Source: Perkinsus olseni (lineage: Eukaryota > Perkinsozoa > Perkinsida > Perkinsidae). Taken from it: DNA of 61,866 bases. The position numbers and the translations under genes are program-made. Shown piece by piece: positions 5,944 to 61,866 of the stretch (position 1 is the first letter of the stretch; the number at the start of each line of letters is the position of its first letter). A model generated the notes under the pieces. That model did no database searches and was not told the DNA's origin. It saw only the letters and a list, made by a program, of their open reading frames with translations. The stretch is from contig JABANP010000304.1 of assembly GCA_013115135.1 (NCBI GenBank), positions 1-61,866 of the forward strand, given 5' to 3'.

Positions 5944-7051
5944 ATGGCGGCCAGAGAGTCCCCTTCGGACTCGACCCAGGAACGGGAGCCGTCTGATGAG
6001 GAGTCAGACACTGCTGAGGAGATCCTCGGGATATCAGCCAGCGATCTGACGGACCAGCGAATCGTGGTAAGGAGAGAGTTTGTGAAATGGAGCCACCGGG
6101 ATTCGAACCTGGGTCATTGCGTGATTGTATTGAGTTTTATCCGTTGGACCACACTACTCACTTTCGACTCAGGACTTCATCAGGAGCAGCATGTCCCGTA
6201 ACTACTATGCTTCTCGAGAGTGGACGGATGAGTTCTATACCCTACAGGCGTATATCGGCTGCATCGCCGTCTCCTACCAGAACCGTCTTCTGATGCCAGA
6301 GATGCAGAAAAGGTCGGCCCTTCGGTTGCGCTTTTACCGAACTTATCAGCAGGATGCTAATAGGTACTGCATGCTGGACTTTTGCAAGTTACACATACCA
6401 AAAAAGATTCGTCGAGCGATTCGGCGGTTGGGCCCCGGGGAGCTCACCTTCCGAACGACACGGGACCCGAGTGGCGCTGCGATTGAACGAGTGATCAAGG
6501 GGATTGCCAGGGCGAATGGGAAGAACAATTGGCTTGGGACAAAGTAAGCTGCTTTCAGGCCCGAGTTCGATCCCGGCACGTGTCATTAATGTCGTCATCT
6601 TATTAAATCAAGGTACGTGACGATTCTCAAACGGATGAATCAGCGTGGACCAATCCCAGTTGGGGACTCTATGTTTGAAGTCGAGTGCGTCGAGATCCTC
6701 GATTCCACTGGCAAACTTCTCGCCGGAGAAGTGGGCTACACCATGGGTGCTGCGTACACCTCCCTCTCCGGTTTCGTCAACCGGAGAGACCCACAGTGCA
6801 GCCATCGGGCAGTGGGACTTCTCCAAATGGTCGCCCTCGCGAAGGTCCTCGAGGACGGCGGATACGATTTCTGGAATCTTGGTCACCCTCCGTGCGGTGA
6901 GCAAATGCGGTATAAAATAGACATCGGCGGAGACGTTCTGCCGAGAGGCGATTTCCTGCGGCGGTGGGACCGGGCTCGTGAGAAGCGACCGCAGAAGAGG
7001 CTCTCCTTGCAGGACCCTATATGTTTGCGCACTTTGTTACAAGTTTCTTAA
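5944..7051 (+). CDS. leucyl/phenylalanyl-tRNA-protein transferase-like protein
   Basis: Three exons close in phase: 5944-6066, 6173-6543 and 6613-7051, giving about 310 aa. After an acidic, Ser-rich N-terminus, the core resembles bacterial Aat-type L/F transferases: EFYTLQAYIGCIAVS, LLMPEMQKR, LDFCKLHIPKKIRRAIRR, then a GNAT-like half with VECVEILDSTGKLLAGEVGY and VGLLQMVALAKVLEDGGYDF. The family transfers Leu, Phe or related residues from aminoacyl-tRNA to protein N-termini for N-degron recognition. The 106-nt first intron contains an antisense tRNA-like sequence, and the 69-nt second intron contains a sense T-arm (GCCCGAGTTCGATCCCGG), so the only introns of a tRNA-using enzyme both carry tRNA relics. 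No clear organelle signal. Family assignment is from motif memory. Confidence 0.7.
6088..6160 (-). repeat. tRNA-like element in intron 1 of the transferase gene (antisense)
   Basis: On the minus strand the sequence has a D-arm-like GTCCAACGGAT, then GACCCAGGTTCGAATCCCGG, a 5-bp T-stem with canonical TTCGAAT loop and B-box. The 3' acceptor strand (TGGCTCC) has no matching 5' strand, because the 5' end runs into GTGAGTAG. Not a functional tRNA as it stands. Confidence 0.7.
6562..6586 (+). repeat. tRNA T-arm relic in intron 2 of the transferase gene
   Basis: GCCCGAGTTCGATCCCGGC lies inside the 69-nt intron 6544-6612, 15-20 nt after the 5' splice site. Only the T-arm is recognisable; there is no D-arm or anticodon arm upstream. 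Confidence 0.55.
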
Positions 7052-8313
7052 CCCAAGTGTTTGCGTTTCATATCATTATGATGGTTTGCATGGCCACCGT
7101 CGAGGCCCACTGAAAAGACTTAGTAGTGTGTTCTTTGCGTGCTGTCGTTGGCATAACGTAGCGGCTGCTGTGCACTACGCATTGGGCTTGTCATGAGAGC
7201 ATTGATGATGAACCGAGACTGTGACACTCCGTTCTCACGGCAGTCACCAACACAACCGGCTCTGTGAAACGGTGAACAGACCAGTCAATGCTGAACTATC
7301 GAGTTGAGTCCCTCCTCCATCGGGTTGTGAGGAGAGGACTCGGCTCCAACTGTGCTTGCGAACACGGACGATGGCCATCAGGTCAATGACCAAGCTGCTG
7401 AAAGTCCAATCGGGACAGACAGTGCAGTATCGCCCTCGTCACACACGTCGAACTCGACTCGTCCCGTCCTGGAGTGAATCCATTTTTCTGAGGAGTTTTT
7501 CGGTATCCTGACTCAGGATTCCTGAGGATGCCTTTGGACTAGGTCTTGGGCAACTTTTTTAAGGCGTAACAGCCTTACATCCGAGCTACGAACACGCTAA
7601 TTCTACTGCCGTGCGAACTCACAATACTTCAATCCAAGGCGGGCGAAACACCGTTCCTCACGATTCTACTTTTTCCTCAGAAAACCGACTTTACTCGTCC
7701 CGTCCTGTCGATGATAGCTGCTGCGGCTATTGGACTACGTGCCAACAGCAATGCACAGAACGCGTATCTCCAATACCAACTTAAACTCCGAGTGGCTGAG
7801 GGTGGGCAAAGAATACATGCCGCAGATCCGAGCAAGCGCTACTCGAAGATATCAAACAGGATGTTGGTAACATCATCAGCATGAGTAGCTCGACAGTGTG
7901 GCGCTGTACAACAGTTAGCTCTATCTCTACAGTAGCCTGATTGACGAACGCTAGCTTCCGCCGCTAGATTTGCACAACTCGACACTTAGCGAGCTTCGCA
8001 GTTCGTCGCGCGAGAACGAGCATCTTCCGAGGACCGACGTGGCATACACCGAAGTCCGTAGGCCTGCTAGCTGACGACGGATGGTTTGGAGCTCTACGAA
8101 GGTGTTATGTGGGCCGGTTGAGCCACTGTACTTTTACGTACCGTTTGGGTTGAAAAACTCGACACTGTAAAGGATAGAAAAGTGGCTACGAGATTATACA
8201 ATAGAAAACAAAGAGCGCATGCTGAGCAGAGGCACAGTCATGATGGGGCATGCGACATGACACATCAATAATGATGTAATAAAAACAACCTACGCCGGGT
8301 TCGAACTCGGGAC
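7052..8313. other. intergenic region, no supported gene
   Basis: No frame with protein-like composition on either strand. It separates the convergent transferase (+) and coiled-coil (-) genes, so it holds both 3' flanks. A tRNA T-arm-like sequence (CCCGAGTTCGAACCCGGC, minus strand) sits at 8291-8310 just past the stop of the minus-strand gene. Confidence 0.6.
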
Positions 8314-11300
8314 CTATCGCCGAAGACTAGCTCTATTGGCTTGAAAGGCGCTCTCTTCGTCTTCGTCAGAGGACCATGCTCGAATCGGCTTCTTCGTCGG
8401 TGACTGCGAAGCGGAGAAGTTCACGAACCGCCGTCCCCCCAAAAAAACTTCAGAGAACGGGATTTTCCCGAGTTGAAAAAAAAGTCTACTGGAAATTCTC
8501 ACTTTTTTAGGGTAAGCTTCCACAGCAACTTCAAGCTCGACCTCCGCGCAATGGTACTGCGACACAGAATTTACACGGCGAGCCTGAATGATGAATCATC
8601 AGCTTTTTCACGCTAATGACATACCGTCACTTCTCGTCACATGACCAACACTGACAGGTGGGGTCTCTCCAAGGCGCTGAAAACCCGAGATTAGCAAGCT
8701 TCGACCTAAGATGCGTCCCACTCTATGATTGCCGGTGGCATCTCGACGCAGCCGCCGGAGAGCTTCTTCTGCTTCTAGCATTTTCAGCCGGTACCGCTCC
8801 TTCTCCAACTCAGCGTCCTGAGTCGAGTGGAAACATAAGGAGTCCACTGAGTCAAATCGCATAACGGTGCTGAACGAGCGGTCGTATCCAACTTGAGCTC
8901 GCCCAACGCGCAGAGTCCCTCAGCGTTGGGAACTGATCTAACGACCGCAAAAATCCGCGATCTGCCAGCTATAACAAGGCTTTAGATTGAAACAGAACAC
9001 CGTGTTTTACAAGGACTCTTCTTCCATTTTGATGTTGTTCGGGTGAATACTCGCGTGGCATGCTCCCAAAATCGCCCCCCTGAGTGCCGACTCCTACATC
9101 GAAGTGGCTCGGAAAAGTCGCCAAATAACTATAGATTACACATTCAGAATATGGCCCGAAAAAATTGACTTTTCTGCCGGAAAATACGAAAATTTACGCG
9201 AATCCGGTGGACGACTGCTATCATTATAAAACTAACGAACGTGTTGACAGACCTCTCCAAGCTCACCTCCAACAGCGAGGTATACATCTTAGCTTTGTCG
9301 CTCTCCTGTCCGCACTGCTGCTGAGCGAACTTGAGCTCTGATCTCAACTTGGCAGTTTGACTGCGCAACTCCGATACCTCGGTCGAGTACTGTTGTGCCT
9401 AGAGAGTTTGACCACTTCCGACGTCAATCGCGCGTTGCAATTGGACGTACGGCGGAGTCGAGTTGCTCTACAAGCCACGCGTCCGCGCTAGGCGGTGTCT
9501 TCTGTACACCACGGCGAGCCTCTTGTAACTCAGCCATCAACTTGGACGACCGATGTGACTCATCCTGAAGACGACCGCTGCATAAATTACTCCTGCCTGC
9601 ATCCAATACCACATTTTCGATATTCTCGTGCAACACTATTGGTGGCCACATTGAAATTACTATTGACCAGCGCTCTCACAACATAAGGGGCTGCACTGCT
9701 GTACACCGACTTAGTCCGGTTGTTCATGGCGAGTCCGAACGGCAAGGCCTCACTTACTGCAAGCTGATTTCTCATACGATCACGCTCTTCCTTGATGTGC
9801 GCTATCTCCTTCCGGAGACCTCTCTGATCAACTTCATGCATCGCATTCTGAACGGAGCATCTTGCTATCTTGCATTTCCTCAACGCTGCCGACCGACCAG
9901 GTTCTCAATTTCTCGAAGGAGTTGCCCCTCTCTATCTGGCGAGACGTAGTCACGGAATTTTTCTTTCATCTCCTCCCTGGCCTTGGAAGCCGCAGCATAG
10001 CGATTTTGCTCCAGTTGGAACTCCTAACAACTTGCAATCTTGCCCTCTCTTGCATTTCCTCAAACCTTATCACTTTCTGCAGAGCAGCATATGCTTTCTC
10101 CAGCTTCGTGTATCCTATACACTGAATCAGAGGAGGCCGAATCTTGCAATCTTGCGTTTCCTCAACGTACCCTAGAGCAGGATGCGAGCTGAACTTGACG
10201 CTGTTGGACCCTGCGCGCTTCTCCCTGCCACTTCCGAACTTCTATTTTGAACATGTCGACTACTCGCTGTGTCGCCACATGCTGAGATCAACACTAGATA
10301 CCACCCGTCTTCCGAACAGTTTCAAAAGGCTTAGTTGTTGGACCTCAGCGCCAACTATCCTCATACATAGCGAAGCTTTGTGCCATCCAGAAATCTTCTT
10401 CACGAAAAAAAATAGCGAGTAAAAACTACGGATTGGTGGTTGACGTGGGAACCTCAAGTTGGCGAACGAAGTGTCTAATGCGTGGACTCCAATAGTTCGC
10501 GGGAGCACAACTTCTTCCGACTCGTAGTGCAATGCCGCCGCGGAACGATACAGTTGCTTCCGTCGGAAGATATTAGGAAGGCATGGTACGGAAATTCCCC
10601 TTTTTCGAGCGGCACTGACCTCCTCAGTCTTCTCTTTCAGCTTCTCACTCACCTCTTGCACTTTCTTCTCAAGGCCCGCGACCTGCACTGAATTTCGCGG
10701 CGAGTGACGCTGCTGTAGGCTTCACCTCATTCTGCATGGCCATGATAACGCTGATATGCTCCTTCGTGGACTTCTCCATTGACGTCTGGATGTCTCTGTT
10801 GCTGCTGCCCAGAGCCTTCACCTTCCTGTCTGCCGCTTTCAACTGAATGAGCGTAAGAAATGGGATGACAATAGAGTATCGCGAACGTATCAAATGAGAT
10901 CTGGTTTTGGCTCATCGTACGTCTATTTTCGCACTATCTTGTCACTGCTATTGGCCTGCTATTTGAGGAGGTTGCGGTAACCTCAACCGATAGGGATGGT
11001 AACCTAGTTACCCTACACAAGTTGCTGCTCATCAACGCCCGCTCAGCTTGAGTGTAAGCCAAAAGAGACATGCAAACGAAAACGAAACAAAGATTTCATA
11101 CCCAAGTTTTCAAGTTGGTTCCTATTGGTTTTCGGCCCATACGCCTGACGCTCTCTGGACACCGCGATATTTGATAGATACGACGGAAAGGACCGAGATG
11201 AAAGACGGCGAGAAATTGTAAACAGAGGGGCAGTATTAGCATGGAGGGGGCTGCCATCGGTGCCGAGATGAGCATTCCACGGCTAATACCGGTCGGCCTG

Positions 11301-14132: not shown

Positions 14133-15339
14133 TGGCCATTCGTGCTTGCGGTGAGTATTGGTAATGTACGGCCTCCTTCATAGAGCTTTGGAAAGCAGGT
14201 TGCCCTTCCATAGGAAAGGTCCCCGGTTCGATCCCCGGTCCCTCCTCTTGTTGCGACCAGTGATGGAGTCAGTGAGGGATTAGCATACCCCCGGTCATTC
14301 GTCATTAGTAAAATATATACCACACTTCTCCCACCTCCCAACCCTGCTGGCTGACATCATCCAACTGAACTCAAGGCCCGCTTTCCGGAGGACCTCGTTA
14401 CATCAATAACAACACTACAACGTTCCGGTTCAAAAATGGTCTACCCCCTAAGTTCTGGCAACGGGCGAGCCAAGCTTCGTAATTTCTCGCCAATTTCGGA
14501 CTCTCATTGAGTCCTACACAGCCCCCTCTCCGCCGCAACTGGATCCCCGAACCGTGGGCCCGAAGGCTAGAAGGCCGTGAAGCTACTGCTACTATTACCA
14601 CACGATAACAGAGATTAGAAAAATATGCCAATCGAGTTGTGGAGAGTATCCTGGAGGTAGCAACGAGTGAGAACGGGACTGGCCTCCCATTACCTCCTAG
14701 TGATAATAATTTTTGAAAATAATACTGTCCTCAATTTCTCCGAATCACCTAGGACTGAGAATCTCTGACACAGTATGAGTAAGACCGCGGCGCCCGCTCA
14801 AAGGCTGTAACGGAGAGGTCCCAAGTTTGGCCATCTTCTCACCTGATACTCACTAGCAGCCTGATTGTGACACTATGATCGAGCGAAAGCTCTGTAAGAC
14901 ACCTGTCGTCATCATCACCAGCTACCGCCATATAAAGGGTCGGATAGTTCCTTGGGCAACCAAAACCTTCCGGACAGCTTGCTGGAACTCACCGGGTGCC
15001 AGCTAGTGGCTTTAACGAGCGATGAGGTTAGTATCGCTAAGCGGCAGTAAGAATGCTCTTTGCGTGCATTAATAGAAGGGGAACCTTTGCATGCTGCGAG
15101 GGTGGTGGCTGGACCAAGGGCTGAGCTTTTTACACTACAACTAACGACCAGAAGGAGCCTACAGTTCGAACCCGCCGTAATTCAGTAAAGTATTTCCGAA
15201 AGCCAGAATCGATTCCAGGATTCATTTTTACACGTCAAATTGCGGGTCCGTAATCGATTCTAAGTTTCAGAATTGGTAAGTTGAACGGCCTCTTAATTGA
15301 GTAATCAGCGAAATGGGGCTAATGACCGGCGAAAGCGAT
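14133..15339. other. intergenic region with a tRNA-like relic
   Basis: No supported protein. It lies between the divergent coiled-coil (-) and Mei2-like (+) genes, so it should hold both promoters. At 14165-14250 (+) there is a tRNA-like stretch with GGTCCCCGGTTCGATCCC, and at 15187-15284 a dispersed repeat (listed separately). Confidence 0.5.
15187..15284 (-). repeat. dispersed repeat of about 95 bp, copy 1
   Basis: Its reverse complement aligns along its whole length with 45103-45195: both begin CCAATTC, both carry GGAATCGATTCTGG or AGAATCGATTCTGG followed by a TTTCGGAA block and TACTTTA. Inner arms (GAATCGATT) are partly inverted, which fits a short MITE. Confidence 0.65.
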
Positions 15340-18300
15340 GGTGGACGTCGTAGGAGCAAGCCAGATACAGAACTCACGGGCCTCGACGGAGCACCGCCGA
15401 GAGGAACTTGAGTGCGAAGATGCGCTGTACGCACGCGCCTCCGTCAGCGAGGTAAGAAATTCCTCATCCGTGCGTTTTTACGCGCGTTAAAACGGTCGCA
15501 TTCTTTCGACTCCGCCTTGCGCGAGTGACGCCAGTCTTCCAAATCGCCGAAGTGCTGAGAGGGATCATGAGCAGTTCTCGGAAGGATCTGATCATCGGTA
15601 GTAGGAGGCGGGGCAACAGCTCGGTGGGGGCGCTGCGAGGGGTTCATTTCGAAATTACTAATTGCCTAAGGCCAGGGCGAATCGTGACGGCGGTGGAATT
15701 GGTCTTCTTCGACCCTGCGTCGTGGTTTTGCTCTTCCCGATCACACTGCAATTGCCTGTTGGGCTGGAGATGGCCCCAGCTGCTTCAATAACGCGAAATA
15801 TTTCAAAATTTTGGGAATCAGCGGAATTTTCGTCTAAAAATTTTGTGCGGGTTGGTTGTGGGAGACGGGAGCGCGAAGATGCGCCGATCGACCAGGGGGT
15901 GGGCCTGAGCTGCCTCTGAAGGGGAGATCAGCTCGGGCTTCACATTAGTGCTCCGAGGGGCGTTAATATCTTATTCGTGCTGGACTTTTCCAGCGGTAGG
16001 GCCTCGGAAACCGGGGGCGTGACGCGGTGACGCTGTGGGGCTTCCGACCGTCCGGGCCGGAATCTCGCCGGACTGCCGGTGCACAGCGCTCGTTTCCAAT
16101 CCCTATTATTATCGCCATCATTGGGCGCTACTGGCTAGTACGGCCCTCGGCTCGAAGTCAGGCGTCGTTTGATGGGCTTGGATGGAGTTGATGTTGTGCA
16201 GGTCTGAGTTCTCCGGCATCTGCGGTGGCCATTTGCTCATACTTTGAGACCTTTGGAGACATCGAGGCTGTGGATCTGTCGGGGATGTTCAACTCGGAAT
16301 CGTCCAGTCTTAGCGCTGTATATATTAAGTGAGTTTATGCGAACTCCGCGGATCGAACCGGGGTCGTTCCAAGGTTAGCCGTGGCTTATGCCGTTAGGAC
16401 ATTTGTTCGCAGATATTTCGACAGCCGGGCGCCTTTCCTGGCGATGAACCATTTGAAGGGCGTGAGCAGCTATGCCCCCAAGGTAGTCACCCTGGCACAC
16501 ATCATCTTGACTCCCTGCGATCTCCGCTCCAGGTGGTTGAAGTGGATCCGCTGGGAACCGGCAAGCCTGAGACAATCGACATCAGTAATGTATCCTTACG
16601 AGCTAGCCCTCTCTCTTGCAAGTCGAGGGGCGAAGTTCATATTGCTAGTCTACGCTGGAAGGTTGGCGAGACTCTGAGTTGCTGCGAGAAGTTCGGTGAT
16701 ATGTAAGTGCCCCAACTTCTTTGCTGATTCCCCCCCCCTCGTTCGAGTTCGATCTCCCGCTCAGTGAATTGATCAACGGTCATTCCCCGTCATCCTCCTC
16801 GGCCTCAGCGTACGCATTGGACTTGGACAGCGTGGCAACAACAGTCACTTTCTACGACAGCCGGGCTGCGGACAATTTTCTAAGGGTACGCGGAGCAACC
16901 GGCAGATCTCCCAAGGGTGGTGGGAATTTAAGGTGCTTCAATCGGTGAAGGACATGCGCCGTGCGTCGTGCAGTTTGGGCGAGGAGAAACCCTCGATAGA
17001 ATCTACGGTGAGTGGGAGGGACCGAGGCTCGAACCTATGCCTTTCGATTATGGAATACGTATCATATCCGCTAGGATATAGTCGTTCTTATTTTTAGGAG
17101 AGGAGAGCTACGGTACCCGTGCTGACTTCGGGGATGGTGAAGAGACCTTCAGGTGGGCGGCGACAAGTTGATGACCCAGCGTATTATGCAAATCCGCGGC
17201 CTTTTTAGATCTTGTGGCAAGCATGTCGAGCATGCAGTCAGCAGCATTGCGAGATACTCTCCCGCTGCTGCACCACCCTTCAGAGCTGCAATCCCCGACT
17301 ACCGAAGGCTTTACTGTGCAGCAAAGACTAGCAGACCTTTTCCGTCAGTACGACAGTGCGGTACACGCTCCCGCCAGCGACAGCGACTTGGCCGAGTATT
17401 CGGGAACTCCGCGAGACGCTAATAGAGTTACTCCAGCCAATGCCGCTGAGACTCTGGCCGTCATCATCGGCAGTCATCATCAGCAGGCTGCAGCGGGGAG
17501 CAGCAACAGTGCAGCCGCGAAGGAAGGGGGGAAATTGGAAATTTCCCTGGCCGAGAAGGCGGCGTTAATGTGCGACACGGTTAGGGAGTGGGGCAAGCCC
17601 TTCAGCCCATCACAACCACCACCGCAAACGACGGTGGGGGAAGAAGGCCAACAGAGTGAAGATGGGGGCGTTGAGGAAATGCAAGATGTGCAAGTGGAGA
17701 AAGTTGGGATCTCTGCCGAACAAGAAGCCGCAACTGCATCGGATACTCCCGCAGTTGTTTCAGGTCGAACTGCGGAGATTCTCACGAGTGACAAGTGAGT
17801 CGGCGTGCTTCGGCCTCAAAGATACGTCTCGCACGCGAAAGATTCCGTGGTGTCCCTCAGGTCGCGACGAAGAGGTTCTTTCTGAGATGATTGACACTCA
17901 GAGATGGTCGTCCGTCGATCACCCCATGTTTGCCCGATTGCTTTCGCTTTCGACGCCTTCGCCACGGGGGTACTTTTCCTTAATGCCGTTAATCCCTCTG
18001 AAGGCTTGTAATGGCGCGTGTCCTCGTTTTCACAAGCTCCTCGTAGCTTAAATCTTTGTCTCGCAAGTTGGCGAAATTCAGAGTTGCCGAAGGGTGGATT
18101 CGAACCTGGGTCTCCTTAGTGTTACTGCATGGCGTCATCCCCTCGGCCTACAAGTACGTCCGCAGATCGCCAGCAGCAGCAGCGCCCGTCGATTACCTCT
18201 GAGATCAGCGAAAGGGGCGGTGACACTGAAAATCCCGGCCCAATTCCGCACCGGACAGGCGGTGGAAGCGAGGAGGCGTCTATGGAGGCCCCAAGCCTCG

Positions 18301-20802
18301 TCTTCCCACCCTACCTAGCACTTGGTACTGCTACCTCGGAATCTTCGACCGCCCAGTGATGACCGATGCTCTCGACAGGTATCGGACGACCAGTTCCATT
18401 AAGCATTCTGGCTATGTATTTCGAATCCTTCGGTGAGGCTGATTTTTTGGACTGCACCCGAATGCTCACGGAGTCGTCCGATCCCTATGCTATCCGACTA
18501 AGGTCACAACAACAACAACGCCTTGCTCTGCTCCATCTATCACGGATGCTTGCCAGTTTCTTCGATCGCCGAGTGACCGAGCAAGTTTACCAACGTCTGC
18601 GAGGGGCCTCAAGTGATGATCCACGGGTGAGAAGATCTTAGCCTTCGACGATGGAAGGGGTTGTTATCTCCCTTGCTGCTTCAGTGCGCCGCAATCTCGC
18701 GCGCTGGGCCTTCATCACAGCTGGCTGCTGAGTCGGGCGGTGGCGCCCCTATGGAGATTATCGCAATTACTTCCTGTATCATGGTGGATGTGAGGTAGGC
18801 CCGCCGGCGCTGTATGCTCACGGCCAACGTGATTGATGTCAGGTCGTCGAGACTCCGGGGAGCTGCTGACCCGAGAGTCGTCGATGTGGAACAATTGTGC
18901 TGGTCTCTGCCGGAGGCAGTTGATTGCTGTTCAGAATTCGGGGCGTTGTAAGTAGAATTGTCGGTCGTGGGATTCGAACTCGGGACCTTTCTCGTCGTCT
19001 TCGTCTTCAGGGCATCGGCCAACGGTAGACCCGTGAGTAGATTAATTATGCAAGCCTCTGAACTTTGCCGAGAGGTCGAATTTCACGACAGTCGTGCGGC
19101 TGAGGCGTTCCGCAACGCAGTGAAAGTTCTCGAAGGAGGAGGAGGAGGAGCAGAAAGCTCGAGTTTTCCCGTGAGCCGGGAGGAAGCGCCGCCCCAGCCG
19201 CCGCCACCACCACGACCACCACCACTAAGAACAGCAGCAGCAGGACCTGCAGGTGGGTCCACTGAGAAGTTTCGATTGTAGTTGTTCGACTGCTGCTTTC
19301 AACAGCGGTTCGAGCTGAGCAGCAGCAGCAGCAGCCTCCTACTACTACGACACCCCTTCCTACTATGCCGACGGAACCTTTAATTAGTGCACGTACGGAG
19401 CCAGGTGGTGGTGGTGATGGTCTGCTAACGACGACGACGGGTGTGTTGCAACAGCAACAGCAACCACCGTCACCTCGTCCGACAACAACGACGCCATGGG
19501 GTGAGAAAAATGGAGCTCCCTGGGTTTGAACCTGATACCTTCAGGTGAACGGTCGGCAACCACTCCTCCGGCACCAAGATATCTCACCAGCCAGGTTGCG
19601 AGATCCCTGGCCCGGTTTTATCGCGCAGTTGGTGTGAGCGATTACAGAGGAGCTAGTGAGGCCTCATCAGGAGCTTTTGGGCGCTTTCTATCGTCGTCTT
19701 ACCGGTCCAGGAGTGCCGTCGTCTGCATCGTTGACTGCGATCCAAGCCACTGTCCCTTCCCCGCGAGCAGCAGCGGCAGCAACGTCCCCAGTGGTATCGG
19801 TCCCGGGGATGGAAGAGTCTCTGCACATTACGGAAGTTGAAGGCGGTCTGGCAGTAATAACAACAATAGCAGCTGACGATTTGTGAAAAGTGTGGTATGG
19901 AACATTTCTCTTAGAACCGAACCACAGTGATGGTTAGGAACATACCGCCAGCGTACACTAGTTCGAGGTTGTTGCAAGAGATTCTAGAGACCCTGTAAGC
20001 GGAGTACCATCCATCGCCCAACTCTTGGCGGCAGTATTACTGCTGACTCTCTGATAGGTTAGAGCAAGCCGGCGAGGATGAGCTAGCGGCAGTCAACGCT
20101 GCCGTTGGAGCGCCCTTCGGAATCGATTTTGTCTATTTACCATTTAACCTTAAGAATAGAGCAGGGGTAAGCAGTTCTCGAGCCTCTCTGGCCACGTTCT
20201 CATCATCATCAGGTAAGTTATGGCTTCGTAAATTTAACGACTACTGAAGAGTTGCTCATCTTCCACGAGAGATTCAACCAGCATATTTGGAGATCTGGGA
20301 CCAGCAGAGCTCATAATGGCGGAGAACGAAGACCGTGCGAGATGTCAGCGGCCAGGTTGCAAGGACAACAGGCACTGGTAAGGTCCAACGTGATGAGTTC
20401 ACAATCGATCGCACTTGTCGCTGTGTTGTTCATCAGATTGAAGCATTCGTGAATCGTCTCCACGCAAAGTCAGAGCACATTCCCCTACAAGCTCGTCCTC
20501 TGATTTACGATCCTCGGGTGGTCCTATCGGCAGCGTCATCCTCGTCATCATCAGCCGCAGCTGCGTTGCCACTACCCACAATACCCCGATCGTTCCATGG
20601 GCAACAGCAGCAGCCGCAGCAACGCTCGCCCACAAGTTATCCCGGATTCTCCCCAATACCACCTCCTTCTGCGGGGTCGTCGCCTGCACGATCAACACCG
20701 TCACAGCACCATCACCCTCGTTCTCCGACACCGCGGTACGGTCGCGGCAGGTCTAGAGGCGCGGGTCCCTCCCAACAGTCGCCACCACGACCACGCGAAT
20801 AA
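15340..20802 (+). CDS. Mei2-like RNA-binding protein with repeated RRMs
   Basis: ATG at 15340. The decisive part is the C-terminal Mei2-type RRM: TTVMVRNIPPAYTSSRLLQE (19919-19995), then GIDFVYLPFNLKNRAG (about 20120-20170), VSYGFVNLTTTEELLIFHER and CEMSAARLQGQQALV, matching in order the family pattern NIPNKYT / YLPIDFKN / GYAFINF / ARIQGK. Upstream are two paired RRM-like modules: AICSYFETFGDIEAVDLSGM with YFDSRAPF plus VTFYDSRAADNF, and LAMYFESFGEADFLDCTRM plus VEFHDSRAAEAFRNAV. The FYDSRAA phrase is typical of Mei2 RRM1/2. Gln-, Pro- and Ser-rich linkers separate them. Several introns hold antisense tRNA-like elements (16.34, 17.02, 18.08, 18.96, 19.51 kb). Known Mei2 proteins bind RNA in meiotic or developmental control; the role here is inferred. 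The join near 19.89 kb and the extreme 3' exon are unresolved. Confidence 0.75.
16340..16412 (-). repeat. tRNA-like element filling an intron (antisense)
   Basis: The intron runs from GTGAGTTTAT (about 16330) to TTCGCAG (16412). On the minus strand it reads GCGAACAAATGTCCTAACGG ... CCCCGGTTCGATCCGCGG ... AGTTCGC. The 7-nt ends pair at six positions, a D-arm (TGTC/GGCA) is present, and the element spans nearly the whole intron. The splice joins SAVYIK to YFDSRAPF in phase. Confidence 0.75.
17005..17085 (-). repeat. tRNA-like element filling an intron (antisense)
   Basis: Between the donor GTGAGTGGGAGG and the acceptor TTTTTAG. The minus strand has a D-arm-like TATCCTAGCGGATA and a T-arm CATAGGTTCGAGCCTCGG. 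The 3' acceptor TCCCTCC has no 5' partner. Confidence 0.65.
18082..18150 (-). repeat. truncated tRNA-like element in an intron (antisense)
   Basis: On the minus strand GCCGAGG and CTTCGGC can form a full 7-bp acceptor stem, with GACCCAGGTTCGAATCCACC as the T-arm, but only about 62 nt separate the ends, so an arm is missing. Confidence 0.6.
18960..19030 (-). repeat. tRNA-like element in an intron (antisense)
   Basis: It follows the donor GTAAGTAG after ..CCSEFGAL. The minus strand reads GTTGGCCGATGCCC ... GGTCCCGAGTTCGAATCCC ... GACCGAC; the outer 7-mers pair at six positions. The next Mei2-like exon starts soon after. Confidence 0.6.
19508..19580 (-). repeat. tRNA-like element in an intron (antisense)
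   Basis: Just inside the donor GTGAGAAAAATGG. The minus strand reads GGAGTGGTTGCCGACCG, an anticodon-arm-like TTCACCTGAAGG, a T-arm TCAGGTTCAAACCCAGG and GAGCTCC. The ends are complementary over GGAG/CTCC. Confidence 0.6.
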
Positions 20803-33504: not shown

Positions 33505-33568
33505 AGGATGGTGATCAAACTGAAGGGTAGTCGAAAGGTCCCCGGTTCGATCCAACCATCATGCATCC
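33505..33568 (+). repeat. compact tRNA-like element
   Basis: GATGGT ... ACCATC can close an acceptor stem around GGTCCCCGGTTCGATCCA. The central part (about 35 nt) is too short for normal D and anticodon arms. It lies just upstream (5') of the minus-strand gene starting at 33475. Confidence 0.5.
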
Positions 33569-33803
33569 ATTTATGGATTCCATAGCACAAAATATCGAAG
33601 GATGCCGATCAAATCAGTGACCGCAGACGTGAAGGGAAAGGCCTCATTGGCCGTCTAGTGCTGTTCATCCATCGACTTCCTGCCGAAATCGGGCAAAACC
33701 TCCTCCTCCAGCCCCGCATCCTCAGGGTCGTAGGTTCGATTCCTGGCCGAGGTAATTTTAGGCACTCAACTCTACACCCCCTTACAAGAACACCGTCCAT
33801 GAA

Positions 33804-44249: not shown

Positions 44250-44393
44250 TGAGATTCTCTCCCGGAAAGGAACAACGCTGAGCTGGTTAGAGGCAGAAGA
44301 CGAGGGAATAAGAAATACCTTAACCAGGGATCGAACCGACGACCTTCTCCCTGCAAAAACAACGTCGCGCGCCACGAAATTCGCCGTTTCGAA

Positions 44394-45195: not shown

Positions 45196-45216
45196 AAGGA
45201 ATGATTTCTTTTTCCT

Positions 45217-48900: not shown

Positions 48901-50428
48901 TGTTCACAATAATCGCCACGCATATCACTATGTCACATATGGGGTATCTTTTCCTACTCTTCCTGGACTGTGTGGTGACCCTGGCCGTTACCTTCAGGTG
49001 AGGTACTCAGCGAATTTCCACTTGTCATTTGACAAACGCACGTGAAAATCGAATTTCCAATGACGCGAATCTGGCGGGTGGAGTTATCCGCTTTTGCCGC
49101 TTCGTGTTGGATTGCCAGGAGTAATTCATCCGGATGCAATTTTGACGATTTTCCTTCCGGTGAGAAATTGGTGGAATTACGGTAGGAGGTTCATAGACCT
49201 GTTCAGAATTTCTTGCTGTTACAATCCTCGAGTCGATAATAATATCAAGTAACATCAGTCGATATTATTACTCATTATCGAGGAGTATCATCCTCGCGTT
49301 GATTCGCCTAATTATCATTTTCCCCTATCAGCGCGTTGCTGTGGTTGGACACGTCATCGGCACAGCTTGTGGTAGCTGGACTGGTGAACTTCCTGCTAAT
49401 GATGTTGATGGGTAATATTGACTTTGCTGGGGATTGAACCGGGGACCTTTGGATTGCCTCAGGATTCCTATACACGCTGGCTATTGATAGCCATTGGCGA
49501 TTGCTCTTCGCCTTGACGAGAGATCCTGTGCCAACCGACCCGAAGGAGAAGATCGTCATTGAGGGATGGTCGACTGAGTACAGCGAGCGGACGATGTATT
49601 ACATCACCGTTAAGGCTGGCCATGGTAGTAAGATAAGATACTCCCTGTTGACTCCTTGTTGACTAATCGTTTCATACGTGCTCACAATCGATCAGCCGTT
49701 TCACGAAAGATACTGAGAAACATTTGTTACTGAGTCTATTTGTATTCTCAGAATCGTCGTATAAGATTTTGGTATCTGCGGCTGAGCTTAGAAGTCGGCT
49801 TGTTGGCATACAGGATCGGTTATGTGTTTATGATGCTGGAGAGGATGGATGGACACAGTAGGGACGTATCTTCAACCTCACTTCTCTTCTGCCATCGTCG
49901 ACCTTGGATTCTCGCTGGATTGCTCCGTGAATCATCGATACAGCGTGCATATCTTTTCGCTCATGCTCGTGGTAAGTTAACCTGTGGAGTACGCTGACGC
50001 TTTAGATACATAGATACCAGCCTCGACTGCTTGGATGACCTTAGTGATGGTGTTGGCCATACTCGAGCTCGAAGGCTGGAAACTCTTCTTAACGGTGTGG
50101 CAGCTCGCTACCCTGAGATGGTAGGGCTCGTCTCGCTCGTGGTGCATTGGCGCGCGCCATCACCCTGGTGTATCGAACTTTTCGGAGGACTTCCCTCCCC
50201 ATGCCGGTCTGCGTTGATCGGTACCATCACTGAGATCTTTGTGTGGATTACGTACCATGGCAACTTCCGATTCTCGGCCTGCTCGGAGCTTACCTCGGGA
50301 TTCGCATAGTCGCGGCAAGAATGTGTTGGTCGGCGTTTAAATCGTGGAAAAGATTTCCCGGACACGCTTTGGCATCGGTTGTTGAGCCCGTGCGCACGTA
50401 TATGATTGGTTATTGTGGCGGCTTCTGA
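45934..50428 (+). CDS. polytopic membrane protein, many short exons
   Basis: ATG at 45934. Exon 1 (MEENHVFVPLEGIECE, to 45981) joins exon 2 at 46078 (FWSTFNTWNFRYWVMFLFLC, then FLAHLSQHLIVHFLLKNLF, then TFFFIISPVVMGDMH). Further hydrophobic exons are VVAVTTILVVISEFVILVG (46.63 kb), PVPLMLVAVGLTARLIP, LSVIAYTAQSDAVVSYLLQL (47.15 kb), VLAAVMLLVAGFIAMFAYG with MLSAMMFLLACCLFSCVYVY (48.55-48.71 kb), a TM at 48.95 kb, WRLLFALTRDPVPTDPKEK (49.49 kb) and GLLGAYLGIRIVAARMCWSA (50.29 kb), ending CGGF at 50428. At least eight membrane segments. Introns between them carry families B, C, D and a tRNA-like element (49.43 kb). It could be more than one gene; I do not recognise the family. Confidence 0.45.
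47909..47923 (-). other. spliced-leader-like 15-mer
   Basis: The minus strand reads ACTGTAGCCATCTTG, differing at one base from the dinoflagellate/perkinsid spliced leader 5' part (ACCGTAGCCATCTTG, from memory). The rest of the leader is not present, so at best this is a relic of a reinserted mRNA. Confidence 0.25.
48720..48747 (+). repeat. family D hairpin at a 5' splice site
   Basis: GTATCTTAGGTTGAAGC then ATGGAAGATAC: perfect 7-bp arms GTATCTT/AAGATAC. It begins 5-7 nt after the donor GTGAGAAG following FDRSARK. Confidence 0.7.
49428..49500 (-). repeat. tRNA-like element in an intron (antisense)
   Basis: The minus strand reads TGGCTATCAATAGCCAGCG, then AATCCAAAGGTCCCCGG and TTCAATCCCCAG. 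D-hairpin and T-arm are recognisable. It sits just after a GTAATATT donor. Confidence 0.6.
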
Positions 50429-50479: not shown

Positions 50480-53400
50480 ATGAACATCACTTTAATAACG
50501 GTTGGTAGCAGAGGTGATGTGCAGCCCTTCATGGCCCTCGCCAAGGTGAGGTAGCGACCGTCGATTAATGTGGGTCTAGTTTAGTATCGGCTGTGTGGTC
50601 TGGTGGTATGATTCTCGCTTTGGGTGCGAGAGGTCCCGAGTTCGATTCTCGGCTCAGCCCATTTCGTGCTATGCTGTAGGCTCTGAACGCCCAAGGGCAC
50701 CGCTCTAGGATATGCACCCACGACAAGTTTCGGGACTTCGTCACCAAACAGGGAATTGAGTTCTTCCCTCTCGCCCTTGCTGAGAAAGGGCCACTGGCAG
50801 CCGGAGACCTTGATGAAGTAAAACAGGTTTTGGGAGGCGATAGCGGTAAACTCTGTGTTCCCCCTTCAACTTGGAATATCATATCACAAAGACCTCATGC
50901 AGCTCAGTCGATGTATTCGTGTAATTCTACGCACTGCGGTGGATACTATCAACACGCGTGACAGTAGGACTAGTGGTGGGAGGTTCAGATGCTCTCCGAC
51001 TTGCCGTGTTGAACAGAAGGCTCAGAATTCTGCGAGAGATTCGATTTGTGGCTACGCGAAGAGTTGATGATATCTTGATCTCTATGAAGACTACGGGGGT
51101 TGTCCGCGACTCTCGGTGTTCATCGTCCTATCCTGACCCACTCCCTGCGTTTAACGGCAGCTTCCGTCGTTCAGGTATGCCGAGGAGAATCCTGGAATGG
51201 GGCCGGATCTTCTGCTGAGTCCACGAGATCTCTACCACTTCATGTTCCACGGCCCAGAGATGCAACACACGCTGAAGGAAATCTACTTCCCTCCTAGGGT
51301 GGGAGGATAATACAGTCGGCAGTTGGGCATCAGTCCAAAGTAAGTGTGCCGGCGTGCGTAAAAGTGTCATACCAACTTTCGCCCAACTCGTAGGTGTCAG
51401 TTCGATGAGATGGGTAACTCATGCGATTATAGCGAACCCTCCCTCTTACACTCATGTCCACTTGGCTGAGAGGCTGGGCGTGCCTTTGCAGATGTAAGTC
51501 GAGCTGGGTGGAGGGTTCATGCAGCGGAGTTGAAGTTCACTGATGTGCATCATTTCAACGATCTATACACGCGAAGAAAGAGAAAATGAAAATTCCATGC
51601 GATACTCTCGCGAATTGGTATAGCTACAGAATTATTAGGATATGTGCGGTATCATTGTGTTGAAAACGAGGAGTCCCAGTACGCGTGTTACAAGGCTAAC
51701 AGGTGACCATCTTACCCTCGCCTCGCTGTTTTCTCGCCTCGCAGTCGTCTGTCTTGTCACCAGGCACCACCTTCCCTGTCAGGTTCTTTACCATGCCCTG
51801 GACCAAGACCGAAGCGGTGGGCCATCCCTTGTGTGTTAACGAGCCAGACACCAACCCCTACTGGAAGAAGATGAGCTACCGATGGATGGAACAGGTACTG
51901 ATATCAATCTTGCAATCTTGCTCTCACTTGGGATTTTCTCCACGGTCGATAGATACAGTGGAGAGGCGTGGCATCCGCTGTCAACAAGTTCCGGCGGAAA
52001 GTTCTCCATCTGCCCGAGCATTGGGATGTGGCATGGCGCGGGCTCCTGATTGATAAATGGGGGGTGGGTCAGTAATAAAATAATTTTTATTCGATACCAA
52101 ATTTCCAGCAACTCGTTAGTGGATGTATACCCTTGCAGGTTCCATTTGCCTATTGCTTTGCTAAGACTCTCCTTCCCAAGCCCGCGGACTGGGGGCCGAA
52201 TATTGATATAACTGGATTCTGCTTTGGAGGGTGTAAGGGGCGGTGCTGTCCTGATATCCGTCAGTGGCGGGACTTAGACCTGTTTATTACCATGATCAAC
52301 CTCGGATACTCCTATGCATAAATATTGTGAGAATAATACTTTTAGGGGTACAGAAAATATTTATTGTGATGCTCTTGCGTGTTTTATTTTTCTTCATGTT
52401 GTGCGTGAATTTACTCGTGAAGTATGAGTGTTACAAACGTTGAGGTCATTTGCATCTTGCAGTGTTCGACCTTGGATTCGTCATTTTCTAAGGTGGGGAG
52501 AATACGACCTACGTACCACCACCGCAGTTGGCGGAATTTCTGGATGCTGGAAGTCCGCCGTTTTACGTTGGATTTGGCAGTATCAGCGGTGACTTGAGCC
52601 CAATGTGAGCAGGTCGCGGGTTCGAACCCGAGGGGAGGCATTTTTCTGCTATTTATTCAGTTACAAAGCCGTGCTCTCCGCCGTGAAAGCAATCCCCGAG
52701 TTGCGAATTATTCTCCATAAGGGATGGTGTGACCTCTCCGGTATCACCAAAGACGATTTCCCAGAAGGTTGGTATGAGATTAATTTGCACGCATGCACAT
52801 GCTGCCAATGTTGCCAGAAATTCGTGAAAGAATTTTCCTCATCGCACCACCGCCGGCCAAGTGCCCGGTTTGCAAGGAAAAAGTCGCTCAGTAAGTCCAA
52901 AGGCGCGAGTATCTTTTATTCTGTTTGTTGCCACCTCGACTGATGCTTCCCTGCAGACCTCGGAGTTTCTTCTGTGAGGACTGTGCTGACAGCGATCCTC
53001 AGCAGCGGCCGCTACCTGGGAATATGAGATGGTTGAGACCCTAGGGCCCTCACATGTCGCCCTTACTGCCGGGTGAGTCACAAAATACGGTGAGGGTTGG
53101 AGTGTACAGCTGGATTCTATTTGTTTTCTCTCATTTACTTACATTTGCTTGCTGGTCGTTTCACATCAGAATTTTTGCTAAATTGCGCCGAGAAAAAATT
53201 TTTCCGCATTTTCCTGCAGTTGGCGCAGCCGTACGGGCGTAATTTGAGAATAGGATTATTTTCAGCCACTGTAAAAAATCTCCTGGACTGTCTTGGCCAA
53301 GTTTTCGGAGAATAGACAAATTTTCCGACTCGATAAGATCGCGGTTTCGAAAAAGTTGCTATTTTTTATCGATCAAACCTTTTTCTGAGTCATTAAAAAT

Positions 53401-54489: not shown

Positions 54490-56166
54490 TGTGAAAGTTG
54501 AGCATAAGGTGCCCACTTTGGCTTCCTCAGGACGAGAGGGCTGCTGGGCAGGGAGCTGAGGCGGGGGCGGCGGCCTTCGACCATCAGTTGCCGCTGGAGC
54601 TGGTCACTTGTGAGGTCTGCTCGATGAGGGACAGACACGAGGCGGGGGACACGAGACCGAGGGCTGCGGAGTTTACGGAGGTCAATAAGGATCTTAGGAT
54701 ATGTAAGCGAGGAGGTCCCGGGTTCGAATCCTGGTGACGGCACTTCTTATCCATTTGTGAGGAGACTTTTTGATCCCTGGGTTGGGTGCGAGTTCGATTC
54801 CGGCAGGTTTCATTTTTGCTGCAGGTCCTGTGTGTGCTCTGCTGATGCAGAAAGCTGGAGAGAGTATCCGCTTGGAGCCACTCCGCACGGCCGACTGGTC
54901 CCGGACGAGAGGAGGAATTCTCTACGTGCACTTCGTAGGTTAAACCTGAGTTATTTTGAATCATACGCTCTTGACCTCAAGATACGTTGGTTGAAGTCAT
55001 TTGTGAAGCTTTTCCGTCGAATGATTCAGGGTGGCCAGGAGGGTGGTCTGTGCGGCTTCTTTATCGGTGAGTGACGGGCCCACCAGAAGTAGACGGGAAT
55101 TAACATTTTTCGGGGACTGCGAGGCTTCGTATTGTGAAGCGGGGCATAGCCGTGAGAATTTTTTGAATTGCCGATCCTGGGATTTGAACCGGGTGCCTCG
55201 ATGCGCACCCGTGTCTCCACCACTTGGCGGAGCGGGCAACGGTAGAGGCCCCTGATCCGAAGCTTCAATCGATTTCTTGGCGTCTCTTGTTGATGGTAGA
55301 TTGAGTCATTCGCGTTGCTATAAGCATGGGGAAACGAGCACAGAAATATTTCCCTACTTACCGTACCACTCCTTTCACAACTCTTCCTTCTCTCAGGCGT
55401 CGTAGTGGGCATCTTCGAGTTCCTCGTCTTCGTAGTAGTGGCGCCTTTCATCTTCATACGAGATCTCTTCAGAGTTGCTACTCAAATAGTCGTGCCGGCC
55501 AGTAAGTAGAAAAAAGCTTCGCTCCGCCTTTTTTGAGAATCTTTTGTCGCAGATGGAAGAGCTCATTGTGGTTATAAAATCGATCCGTCGATCGATTTTC
55601 TGAAGGACATGGTAGACTTTACCCTCCCTGTCCTCCCCCTCACGCTTTCTTGCCCAGGTGTTGGTCTCCAGCCCGGTCCACGGCCTCACAGCGGTCAATG
55701 TGTCCACGTTAACGGATGATGATTATATCCTGAATGAACAGGAGGTCGAAGAGCTGGAGAGCGTCACGCGGCAGGCTGTTGGAAAAGTCTTAGAAAGGTC
55801 GGTCCGGGGATCGAACCGGGGACCTCCGGTATTCGACGAGAATATCAGTTTTAAGTTTGCAAATATCAATTAATATACACCGCGCAGGGATCGAACCGGG
55901 GACGTTCTCCTGTTAGGCGTAAGGAGGTGGAGGCCCTCACCAAGGCTGTCTGCTCGTTGATCGAGATGAGAGGCGTTGGCATGGAGCTGACGGCCGACCG
56001 GACTGTCAATGAAGCGCCGGAGACATCATACGCAACAACAGCGGAGAAGGAGGAGAGAGAGGAGCTTGCCGAGTTGCCGGGCGACGTTGCTTTCGACGAG
56101 GGAACGATCTCGGGCCTTGGTGGAGGAATCGTCGCGACTGGGGTAGGGAAGTCGGGGACAGTATGA
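54490..56166 (+). CDS. multi-exon membrane protein of unknown function
   Basis: Exons: LWLPQDERAAGQGAEAGAAA to FTEVNKDLRI (to about 54700); PVCALLMQKAGESIRLEPLR with TADWSRTRGGILYVHFV (54826-54940); LFRRMIQGGQEGGLCGFFIG (55010-55068); PDPKLQSISWRLLLMVD; a transmembrane exon VVVGIFEFLVFVVVAPFIFI then RDLFRVATQIVVPA (55398-55501); VLVSSPVHGLTAVNVSTLTD with NEQEVEELESVTRQAVGKVL (55658-55797); and an acidic last exon from EVEALTKAVCSLIEMRG to VATGVGKSGTV, stop at 56166. Three of the introns contain one or two tRNA-like sequences. One clear membrane helix; the tail is acidic. I do not recognise the family. Confidence 0.55.
54700..54815 (+). repeat. two tRNA T-arms in one intron (sense)
   Basis: Directly after the donor GTAAGCGAGG comes GGTCCCGGGTTCGAATCCTG with 3' acceptor-like TGACGGCA. 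About 60 nt further is GTGCGAGTTCGATTCCGGC. Both precede the TTTTTGCTGCAG acceptor. Confidence 0.65.
55163..55240 (-). repeat. tRNA-Leu-like element in an intron (antisense)
   Basis: The minus strand has GCCAAGTGGTGGAGACAC, a hairpin GGGTGC/GCACCC, T-arm ACCCGGTTCAAATCCCAG and end GGATCGGC. The D-arm is Leu/Ser-like. The acceptor pairs only partly. Confidence 0.6.
55799..55923 (-). repeat. tandem pair of tRNA T-arms in one intron (antisense)
   Basis: One intron (donor GTCGGTCC, acceptor GGCGTAAG) has GGTCCCCGGTTCGATCCC twice on the minus strand, at 55806-55828 and 55886-55904, about 75 nt apart and nearly identical. Confidence 0.7.
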
Positions 56167-57328: not shown

Positions 57329-57358
57329 AATTACATAGTTTCGTTCCCAGGCGACCAT

Positions 57359-61218: not shown

Positions 61219-61531
61219 ATGATACCCCGAGAGCGAGACCTGACGTTCGAGTCGGAGCAGGCCATGTGGAACTACTTCCGGGCATGCCTAGGACTGCTCT
61301 GTGCCATTGGAGTCATCACCTACATGTGAGTGGCCGTTTGGTATAAAAATGCCGTCTGTGGGATTCGAACCCGGGTCGCGCGCTACCCACCATTCTTACT
61401 CCCTGTGCGGTTGTATGTTCCAGCCAGGTACTTCAGTTTCAAGCCCAAAGAAGCCGGCGCTCTACGAGCCTTCCTATATAGCCCATGAGAATCCTCCTCT
61501 CCCGCCCACCCTGGCCTCTGGCGGGTAGCGC
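61219..61531 (+). CDS. small single-pass membrane protein, two exons seen
   Basis: ATG at 61219: MIPRERDLTFESEQAMWNYF followed by a membrane helix RACLGLLCAIGVITY. The donor GTGAGTGG (about 61326) starts a 100-120 nt intron with an antisense tRNA-like element. The next exon most plausibly reads SSPKKPALYEPSYIAHENPP to LASG. Size and layout recall small respiratory-complex subunits, but I cannot name it. Confidence 0.45.
61352..61430 (-). repeat. tRNA-like element in an intron (antisense)
   Basis: The minus strand reads AGCGCGCGACCCGGGTTCGA then ATCCCACAGACGGCA; B-box and T-loop intact, T-stem imperfect, upstream arms unclear. Confidence 0.6.
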
Positions 61532-61552
61532 ACCGGTGACGTCCAGAGTGTA

Positions 61553-61866
61553 AATGGCTGCTATGAATATTCCATCTTCCCATTCGATCTCCCCTCCCTC
61601 ACCGCGTTCAGTCCACGATACATGCCTTGGACGCTGTTTCCCATCATGCTGTTTATCTTGCGTTCGGCAGTGGAGGAGAGTCGAGAAGGGAGAATGCTGT
61701 GGATGGCGAACCTGGCCGGTAGGAGATTTCACTTGCCCGGCGGAGTTTACGCCGAGGAACGCTTCATCGTCCAACCAAAGCCACCTCCTGGTAGCCCAAT
61801 GGTACAGAGTTGTAGGGGCAACCCGTGGGCACAACAGGAGCGGGCACAGCACTTTGAGCGCTGCTC
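61553..61866 (+). CDS. partial membrane-protein exon at the window edge
   Basis: An open frame reads SIFPFDLPSLTAFSPRYMPW, TLFPIMLFILRSAVEESREG and RMLWMANLAG, followed by a GTAGGAG donor. Beyond it, GGTAGCCCAATGGTACAGAG looks like the D-arm of another sense tRNA-like element cut off by the window end. It may belong to the preceding small membrane protein. Confidence 0.4.

What the first reader, a model, noticed from the sequence alone, without database searches (positions are those of the whole stretch)
6067..61866. tRNA-derived sequences inhabit introns across the window
I count more than 25 T-arm/B-box motifs of the form GGTCCCnGGTTCGAnTCC in 62 kb, with at least 18 inside introns supported by flanking protein exons. 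They occur in unrelated genes (transferase, Mei2-like, prefoldin 3, sterol glucosyltransferase, membrane proteins), in sense and antisense. In several (16.34, 17.02, 52.6 kb) the element fills almost the entire intron and begins within 20-30 nt of the GT donor. The T-arm is conserved, while acceptor, D and anticodon parts vary and suggest different parent tRNAs (Pro, Thr, Arg, Leu-like). This argues for repeated capture of tRNA sequence as intron material, a kind of tRNA-based introner, or for selection on a tRNA-like fold in introns. I know of no described system of this kind.
Basis: partly seen in the sequence, partly recalled or inferred. Interest (0 to 1): 0.92.

Follow-up and report, generated by a model that had tools for sequence, protein, structure and literature searches.

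The report
tRNA-tail fragments acting as introns
The genome that holds this window, very likely that of the clam parasite Perkinsus olseni, carries about 3,400 short sequences that look like the tail end of a tRNA gene, and a good share of them are predicted to be complete tiny introns inside ordinary protein genes, so that tRNA-like DNA would be a source of new introns.

Summary
The T-arm/B-box motif is real and genome-wide: 3,466 matches at up to 2 mismatches in the 61.5 Mb assembly against 61 for the reversed control (some are true tRNA genes). The window is about 5 times denser than average and holds one true tRNA gene (Pro, 50589-50660).

Most copies examined are not tRNA genes: they score 29 bits or less on a local tRNA model, against 71-82 for three real tRNAs that helped build it. 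They resemble only a pre-tRNA 3' end: variable loop, T-arm, C72, A73, T-run, no CCA.

Ten copies in 8 genes sit where conserved proteins need an intron of 43-56 nt (adenylosuccinate synthetase, kinesin, ammonium transporter, kinases and others), 6 sense and 4 antisense. The element is nearly the whole intron, which points to intron creation.

'At least 18 in introns' is not reproduced: 8 of 24 matches have a good short-intron candidate. Selection on the fold is not supported overall: the T-stem does not covary.

Best reading: an introner-like family derived from tRNA 3' ends. Splicing and mobility are inferred; no RNA data or empty sites were available.

The parts
52605..52660 (+). 56-nt intron filled by a sense element (T-arm 52612-52629), in a sterol-glucosyltransferase-like gene
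   Evidence: spliced peptide aligns across the junction to PDB 1iir GtfB E 2.8e-8; sterol glucosyltransferase 5gl5 E 0.006; unspliced frame has stops; Pfam gave no hit for it
19501..19544 (+). predicted 44-nt intron filled by an antisense element (T-arm 19522-19539 on -)
   Evidence: splice-site and open-frame score 13.9
18948..19010 (+). predicted 63-nt intron with an antisense element (T-arm 18970-18987 on -)
   Evidence: score 12.7
34520..34567 (+). predicted 48-nt intron filled by a sense element (T-arm 34528-34545, exact)
   Evidence: score 14.9; the other orientation scores 12.6, so the strand is uncertain
32029..32080 (-). predicted 52-nt intron filled by a sense element (T-arm 32053-32070, exact)
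   Evidence: score 10.3
49412..49462 (+). predicted 51-nt intron with an antisense element (T-arm 49430-49447 on -)
   Evidence: score 10.9
16329..16397 (+). predicted 69-nt intron with an antisense element (T-arm 16349-16366 on -, 3 mismatches)
   Evidence: score 10.9
33511..33585 (+). predicted 75-nt intron with a sense element (T-arm 33537-33554)
   Evidence: score 11.3
17008..17097 (+). possible 90-nt intron with a degraded sense element (17019-17036, 4 mismatches)
   Evidence: GTGAGT donor and TTTTTAG acceptor seen in the sequence; not scored
12691..12759 (-). possible 69-nt intron with a sense element (T-arm 12709-12726)
   Evidence: score 9.9, just under the line of 10
33726..33743 (+). 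T-arm element, weak short-intron candidate
   Evidence: score 7.8, antisense
14218..14235 (+). T-arm element (exact) with an upstream remnant that looks like a Gly(TCC) anticodon loop; no short intron found
   Evidence: sequence; anticodon reading by eye; no candidate
54714..54731 (+). T-arm element (exact), intron not resolved (two elements close together)
   Evidence: score 2.7
6099..6116 (-). T-arm element with a degraded longer tRNA-like upstream part
   Evidence: sequence, read by eye; no Rfam tRNA hit; score 6.7
8297..8314 (-). T-arm element, no short intron found
44327..44344 (-). T-arm element, next to a copy of the ATTTCGTGGCGC motif
   Evidence: score 3.6
55807..55824 (-). T-arm element (exact, palindromic; also counted as 55801 +); no short intron found
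55887..55904 (-). T-arm element, no short intron found
61361..61378 (-). T-arm element, no 38-75 nt intron found
50589..50660 (+). true tRNA-Pro(TGG) gene: a control, not an element
   Evidence: ARAGORN, Rfam 51.2 bits, local tRNA model 70.7 bits (it is one of the model's ten sequences)

Best explanation
The repeats look like roughly 45-nt copies of the 3' end of a tRNA precursor (variable loop, T-arm/B-box, C72-A73, T-run), and many likely act as complete 43-70 nt spliceosomal introns: a tRNA-derived introner-like family. Inferred mechanism: fragments of tRNA or SINE-type Pol III transcripts, which still end in the U-run and lack CCA, were copied into DNA. They were inserted in either orientation at AG|G sites in exons. 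The target would supply most of the GT and AG. In sense, the element would supply an A/G-rich stretch near the donor (GTRAG...AAGG) and the T-run as pyrimidine tract; in antisense, CCTTTC of the variable loop would serve as the tract. Once spliced out they would be nearly harmless, so they persist and decay. Shown: the copies, their tRNA-3'-end spacing, and their intron position in conserved genes. Not shown: transcription, copying by reverse transcriptase, recent mobility, and splicing at RNA level.
For: Number: 3,466 matches against 61 control. tRNA 3'-end spacing outside the searched letters, in 98 copies: CA at 72-73 in 61 of 98 (mean 7.8 over 20 other offsets); TTT right after it in 54 of 98 (16, 14, 4, 8 at four other offsets); CCA directly after A73 in 1 of 98. 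Information is 0.1 bits or less beyond -12 and +34. Introns: 10 element introns in 8 genes join exons of conserved families: kinesin 6.1e-21, kinase (CK2-like by eye) 1.6e-20, ammonium transporter 8.4e-30, TPP enzyme 1.5e-13 (two introns), adenylosuccinate synthetase 1.5e-53, kinase 1.3e-19 (two introns), RING 2.3e-7; glycosyltransferase 2.8e-8. In adenylosuccinate synthetase 120 of the 120 listed homologues (4,497 found) align without gap across the junction. Lengths of 43-56 nt leave no room for a pre-existing intron. Enrichment: score >=10 in 38.8% of 98 copies and 30.9% of the 81 not in seed loci, against 8.9% of 4,000 random positions; score >=12 in 29.6% and 22.2% against 3.4%.
Against: No RNA-seq and no empty site: in the one homologous contig pair compared, all five elements seen are on both contigs. 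No target-site duplication beyond AG|G in 27 score-picked introns (shuffle fraction 0.17). T-stem positions 51-63 pair in 40% against 42% expected over all 98, so the copies are not recent faithful tRNA pieces; allowing a loop of 6 or 7 changes nothing. Copies could not be traced to a named parent tRNA. More than half of the copies have no short-intron signature at score 10. Copies were found by their T-arm, which biases that part towards looking conserved, and 70 of the 98 come from loci fetched for the motif. The ten homology cases were picked because I recognised the proteins. Score-picked boundaries can be wrong: for the kinesin intron the test chose 71 nt instead of 49.
Confidence: 0.68

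Rival explanations
1. Ordinary introners of DNA-transposon (MITE-like) origin whose sequence only resembles a T-arm.
For: Most introner families are read as DNA transposons, and many lack detectable site duplications (49 of 130 show them) (PMC9860276 passages). Copies occur in both orientations, and the T-arm core is partly palindromic.
Against: tRNA 3'-end spacing outside the searched core (C72, A73, T-run) in more than half of 98 copies; no site duplication beyond AG|G; the ends of the copies vary.
Confidence: 0.15
2. tRNA-derived SINEs or tRNA pseudogenes landed in introns that already existed.
For: More than half of the copies are not in short introns by my test. A few (L116, L117, window 6099, 14218) keep more of the tRNA body (read by eye).
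Against: Homology-fixed introns are 43-56 nt and the element fills almost all of each; an added 40-45 nt would give introns near 90 nt.
Confidence: 0.1
3. Selection keeps a T-arm hairpin or B-box in introns, for example for TFIIIC binding or splicing.
For: The T-arm is the most constant part of the copies. In 21 copies classed as sense introns pair 51-63 forms in 71% against 55% expected.
Against: No covariation over all 98 copies or in the 14 antisense ones (14% against 19%). The constancy is partly the search criterion. One pair of homologous copies differs at 2 of 18 T-arm letters.
Confidence: 0.05
4. Some copies are functional or recently dead tRNA genes.
For: One true tRNA-Pro lies in the window. 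Tyr tRNA genes share GGTCCCTGGTTCGA, so some of the 3,466 matches are tRNA genes.
Against: Other window copies score 22 bits or less against 70.7-75 for the two real tRNAs of that search, which are also model sequences. No 5' acceptor strand: 16 of 98 with 6-7 pairs against 15.9 expected.
Confidence: 0.02

Closest known systems
Introners / introner-like elements (Micromonas, Aureococcus, Amoebophrya, fungi; survey PMC9860276, passages seen; PMC7789003, passages seen)
   Same: Many dispersed copies, each nearly a whole intron, mostly without net change of the mRNA; splice sites partly or wholly recruited from the target; aquatic protist host.
   Different: Published families are mostly read as DNA transposons, part of them with 3-9 bp site duplications and/or terminal inverted repeats. 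'tRNA' and 'SINE' occur 0 times in that survey's main text. Here the body is like a tRNA 3' end and no duplication was found.
p-SINE1-like intron of rice catalase A (Iwamoto et al. 1998 and 1999; original papers not read; cited in PMC2394776 and PMC3151243, passages)
   Same: A SINE insertion that became a coding-region intron.
   Different: A single case; here thousands of copies, many of them likely introns, only about 45 nt long and mostly without a tRNA 5' head.
tRNA-derived SINEs (features recalled)
   Same: B-box, tRNA relationship, dispersed and decayed copies, end in a T-run.
   Different: SINEs normally carry the tRNA head with A and B boxes at their 5' end plus a body. Here the A-box half is missing in most copies examined.
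Alu intronization in human 3' UTRs (PMC2394776, passages)
   Same: A retroelement supplies parts of new splice sites.
   Different: Four alternative introns in UTRs; Alu is 7SL-derived (recalled).

Membership tests
Introner / introner-like element | many similar copies that each make up an intron in unrelated genes | tested here: met
   10 homology-fixed introns in 8 genes; enrichment over random positions
Introner / introner-like element | copies are spliced out of mRNA | not testable with these tools
   no RNA data; inferred from protein homology and splice sites
Introner / introner-like element | recent gain: presence/absence between alleles or relatives | tested here: inconclusive
   one homologous contig pair (L066/L067), all five elements shared; a 5-kb window stretch and the ammonium transporter exons have no second copy to compare
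DNA-transposon-type introner | target-site duplication | tested here: not met
   27 introns, nothing beyond AG|G
tRNA-derived SINE | tRNA-related head with A box and B box | tested here: not met
   no 5' acceptor partner; in 34 of 88 matches of the local tRNA model only positions 44-65 or fewer are covered, and the others outside true tRNAs score 29.1 bits or less
tRNA-derived SINE | Pol III-type T-run end | tested here: met
   TTT right after A73 in 54 of 98, 4-16 of 98 at four other offsets; in sense introns it doubles as pyrimidine tract
tRNA-derived SINE | copied by a LINE reverse transcriptase | not tested
   no LINE search done
functional tRNA gene | full cloverleaf | tested here: not met
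   ARAGORN and Rfam find only the tRNA-Pro in the window; copies 29.1 bits or less against 70.7-82 for three real tRNAs used in the model

The most novel reading that the evidence does not exclude
Perkinsus olseni makes introns out of tRNA: 3' ends of several different tRNA precursors have been captured again and again, in both orientations, as ready-made 45-55 nt introns. A second, A-box-like intron-filling motif (ATTTCGTGGCGCAG) may be the matching 5' side. Pol III genes would then be a renewable source of spliceosomal introns.
Probability: 0.35. Interest if true: 0.87.

Novelty: new variant of a known kind. Interest (0 to 1): 0.73.

Why it matters
Where new introns come from is an old question, and known introner families are mostly read as DNA transposons. 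A genome-scale family built from tRNA 3' ends would add a Pol III/tRNA source. It would show that a 40-nt insert can splice in both orientations by borrowing splice sites from its target, and it would make intron birth testable between Perkinsus species and isolates. It also warns annotators that T-arm 'tRNA fragments' in this genome can be intron bodies.

Tried and rejected
Searches without result: 18S rRNA (family search failed three times; pattern 0 hits) and mitochondrial COX1 (0 hits) to name the organism; a protein search named it. Pfam on ten long window ORFs gave nothing. Codon bias was too weak for gene finding. The candidate-intron length histogram from splice-site pairs was noisy. 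The CK2-like peptide gave no PDB hit at my too strict cut-off of 1e-35.

Considered and rejected: functional tRNA genes, fold selection, insertion into old introns (see rivals). The control AGTG upstream of the T-arm was a poor one, because AGTG contains the donor GTG (82 against 52 matches); I do not rest on it.

The presence/absence search through homologous contigs and an ammonium-transporter query found no empty site.
Full report
OBSERVATION. GGTCCCNGGTTCGANYCC with up to 3 mismatches matches 24 times in the 61.9 kb window (5 exact), and the same pattern read backwards 0 times; in 20 loci of 10 kb chosen without regard to the motif it matches 15 times in 200 kb against 4. The window is contig C229 of a 61.48 Mb, 968-contig genome. 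There the exact 17-mer GGTCCCNGGTTCGATCC occurs 286 times against 0, and the 18-mer with up to 2 mismatches 3,466 times against 61; true tRNA genes are among these. At that stringency the window holds 18, one per 3.4 kb against one per 17.7 kb genome-wide. In a count of 11-mers over the window and the 20 loci the T-arm word GGTCCCCGGTT is about 70 times over-represented.

ORGANISM. A 357-aa window ORF matches a Perkinsus olseni protein at 98% identity over 47% of the query. I take the host to be P. olseni or a very close relative.

NOT tRNA GENES. ARAGORN and Rfam find one tRNA in the window, Pro at 50589-50660. A covariance model built from ten tRNA sequences of this genome scores the three real tRNAs in the searched loci at 70.7-82 bits (all three are among the ten, so they match by construction) and the copies at 29.1 or less; in 34 of 88 matches only positions 44-65 or fewer are covered. 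The 7-nt partner expected for the acceptor strand is no more frequent upstream of 98 copies (16 with 6-7 pairs) than with swapped upstream sequences (15.9); two of the 98 are real tRNA genes (the Pro in the window, an Ala in L017).

WHAT THE COPIES ARE. The 98 copies (up to 2 mismatches) are 18 from the window, 10 from the 20 loci and 70 from loci fetched for the motif; one palindromic place (L001) and one allelic pair (L066/L067) are counted twice, so 96 are independent. They share information only from about -12 to +34 around the T-arm. Positions that were not part of the search still follow tRNA 3'-end spacing: C72 in 73 of 98, A73 in 71 of 98, CA at 72-73 in 61 of 98 (mean 7.8 at 20 other offsets), TTT right behind in 54 of 98 (16, 14, 4 and 8 at four other offsets), CCA directly behind in 1 of 98 (4 of 98 within the next few bases). 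Acceptor positions 66-69 carry 0.15 bits or less. So the copies look like the 3' end of pre-tRNA or SINE-type transcripts, not of mature tRNA. Over all copies the T-stem does not covary: pair 51-63 forms in 40% against 42% expected; allowing a 6- or 7-nt loop, 61 of 98 have 4-5 pairs against 60.9. In the subset of 21 classed as sense introns pair 51-63 forms in 71% against 55%, in the 14 antisense ones in 14% against 19%. On the whole this speaks against selection on the fold and against recent faithful copies of many intact tRNAs. A few places keep more of a tRNA (L116, L117, window 6099 and 14218; read by eye), which fits 5'-truncated copying, an inference.

THEY ARE INTRONS. Examples fixed by protein homology, all with GT-AG ends: kinesin 49 nt, CK2-like kinase 53, ammonium transporter 46, glycosyltransferase in the window 56, TPP enzyme 51 (antisense) and 55 (sense), adenylosuccinate synthetase 48 (antisense), a second kinase 43 (antisense) and 51 (sense), and a RING protein 44 (antisense). 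That is 10 introns in 8 genes, 6 sense and 4 antisense. These examples were picked because I recognised the proteins; they are not a random sample. Pfam E-values of the spliced peptides, in gene order: 6.1e-21, 1.6e-20, 8.4e-30, none for the glycosyltransferase, 1.5e-13, 1.5e-53, 1.3e-19 and 2.3e-7. PDB alignments cross the junctions for adenylosuccinate synthetase (1dj3, 100 residues ungapped), the TPP enzyme (9iz3), kinesin (7rx0), the glycosyltransferase (1iir 2.8e-8) and the transporter (1u77). Across the adenylosuccinate synthetase junction 120 of 120 listed homologues (of 4,497 found) align ungapped within 10 residues with 71% identity; for the TPP enzyme 59 of 120 and 116 of 120 (258 found), the first with an indel nearby. 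The element is almost the entire intron, so the intron most likely arose with the element.

STATISTICS. With a generic splice-site matrix (recalled), intron length 38-75 nt and 90 open bases either side, 38.8% of 98 copies reach score 10 against 8.9% of 4,000 random positions, and 29.6% against 3.4% reach 12; leaving out seed loci, 30.9% and 22.2% of 81. The boundaries it picks are not always right (L001: 71 nt instead of the 49 nt that kinesin requires). In the window 8 of 24 reach 10. So roughly a third of the copies are short introns by this test; the rest are weak, longer or not intronic.

MECHANISM. The two junctions of 27 score-picked introns (of 75 elements tried) share nothing beyond AG|G, so there is no site duplication of the usual 3-9 bp. 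The distance from donor to T-arm varies (3-21 nt in 14 of 15 sense introns, 50 in the other), as does the distance from T-arm to acceptor in the 12 antisense ones (4-23 nt, counted by eye). In both orientations GT and AG seem to come largely from the target, while the element brings AAGG, the T-run or its complement CCTTTC. I infer copying of Pol III transcript 3' ends and insertion at AG|G, followed by splicing. Neither reverse transcription nor recent movement was shown: in the one homologous contig pair I could read (95-96% identical) all five elements are on both contigs, and a 5-kb window stretch and the transporter exons have no second copy.

PRIOR WORK. Introners are known in many genomes and mostly read as DNA transposons; that survey's main text has 0 occurrences of 'tRNA', 'SINE' and 'Perkinsus' (PMC9860276, passages only; its supplements were not seen). 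Amoebophrya, a marine alveolate (as Perkinsus is, recalled), has introners with inverted repeats (PMC7789003, passages). A SINE-derived intron in rice catalase A and four Alu-derived UTR introns are in print (PMC2394776, passages; originals not read). Ten searches showed no paper whose title or abstract start describes a tRNA-based introner family or introners in Perkinsus (of most listed papers I saw only the listing), in an open-access library without preprints. A 2025 study on introners and horizontal transfer that I recall did not come up.

VERDICT. The motif is real, and its intron role is supported by sequence and homology. It is best filed as an introner-like family with a tRNA 3'-end body, a new variant of a known kind. 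Splicing at RNA level, mobility and number of parent tRNAs remain open.

Noticed in passing
window 1490, 12357, 31413, 34051, 43141, 46520 (+); 33903, 34715, 43108, 44380, 46834 (-): Second repeated motif TAATTTCGTGGCGCG(C/T)GAC, A-box-like (TGGCGCAG) in some copies: 11 exact cores in the window, 5 in 200 kb elsewhere. 7 of 29 nonredundant copies fit a 38-75 nt intron at score >=10 (random 8.9%); possibly a second introner family.
   Followed up: partly
window 9861, 10143, 31724, 31891, 33968, 35524, 41727: Dispersed motif CTTGCAATCTTGCATTTCCTCAACG, 7 copies of 27 nt; some of its words are over-represented over window plus 20 loci.
   Followed up: no
window and loci L006-L025: Words of GCTTCGCTCCGC 68-95 times over-represented, another short dispersed repeat.
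   Followed up: no
G000 contigs C154, C172, C778, C823: Tandem arrays of tRNA genes (Lys-like about every 153 bp on C154; Ile on C778; Arg on C823; a Tyr/Lys/Asn unit of about 1.23 kb on C172; Lys, Tyr and Asn named by eye).
   Followed up: no
window 45155-45547: 26-nt tandem repeat array.
   Followed up: no
window 2051-2542: Large imperfect inverted repeat, arms 80-140 nt, 81-83% complementary.
   Followed up: no
L066 1632-2129 against L067 near 1644: 498-nt stretch present on one of two homologous contigs.
   Followed up: no
G000: No COX1 family match and no exact match of one conserved 18S 16-mer in the assembly: organelle and rDNA contigs may be left out.
   Followed up: no
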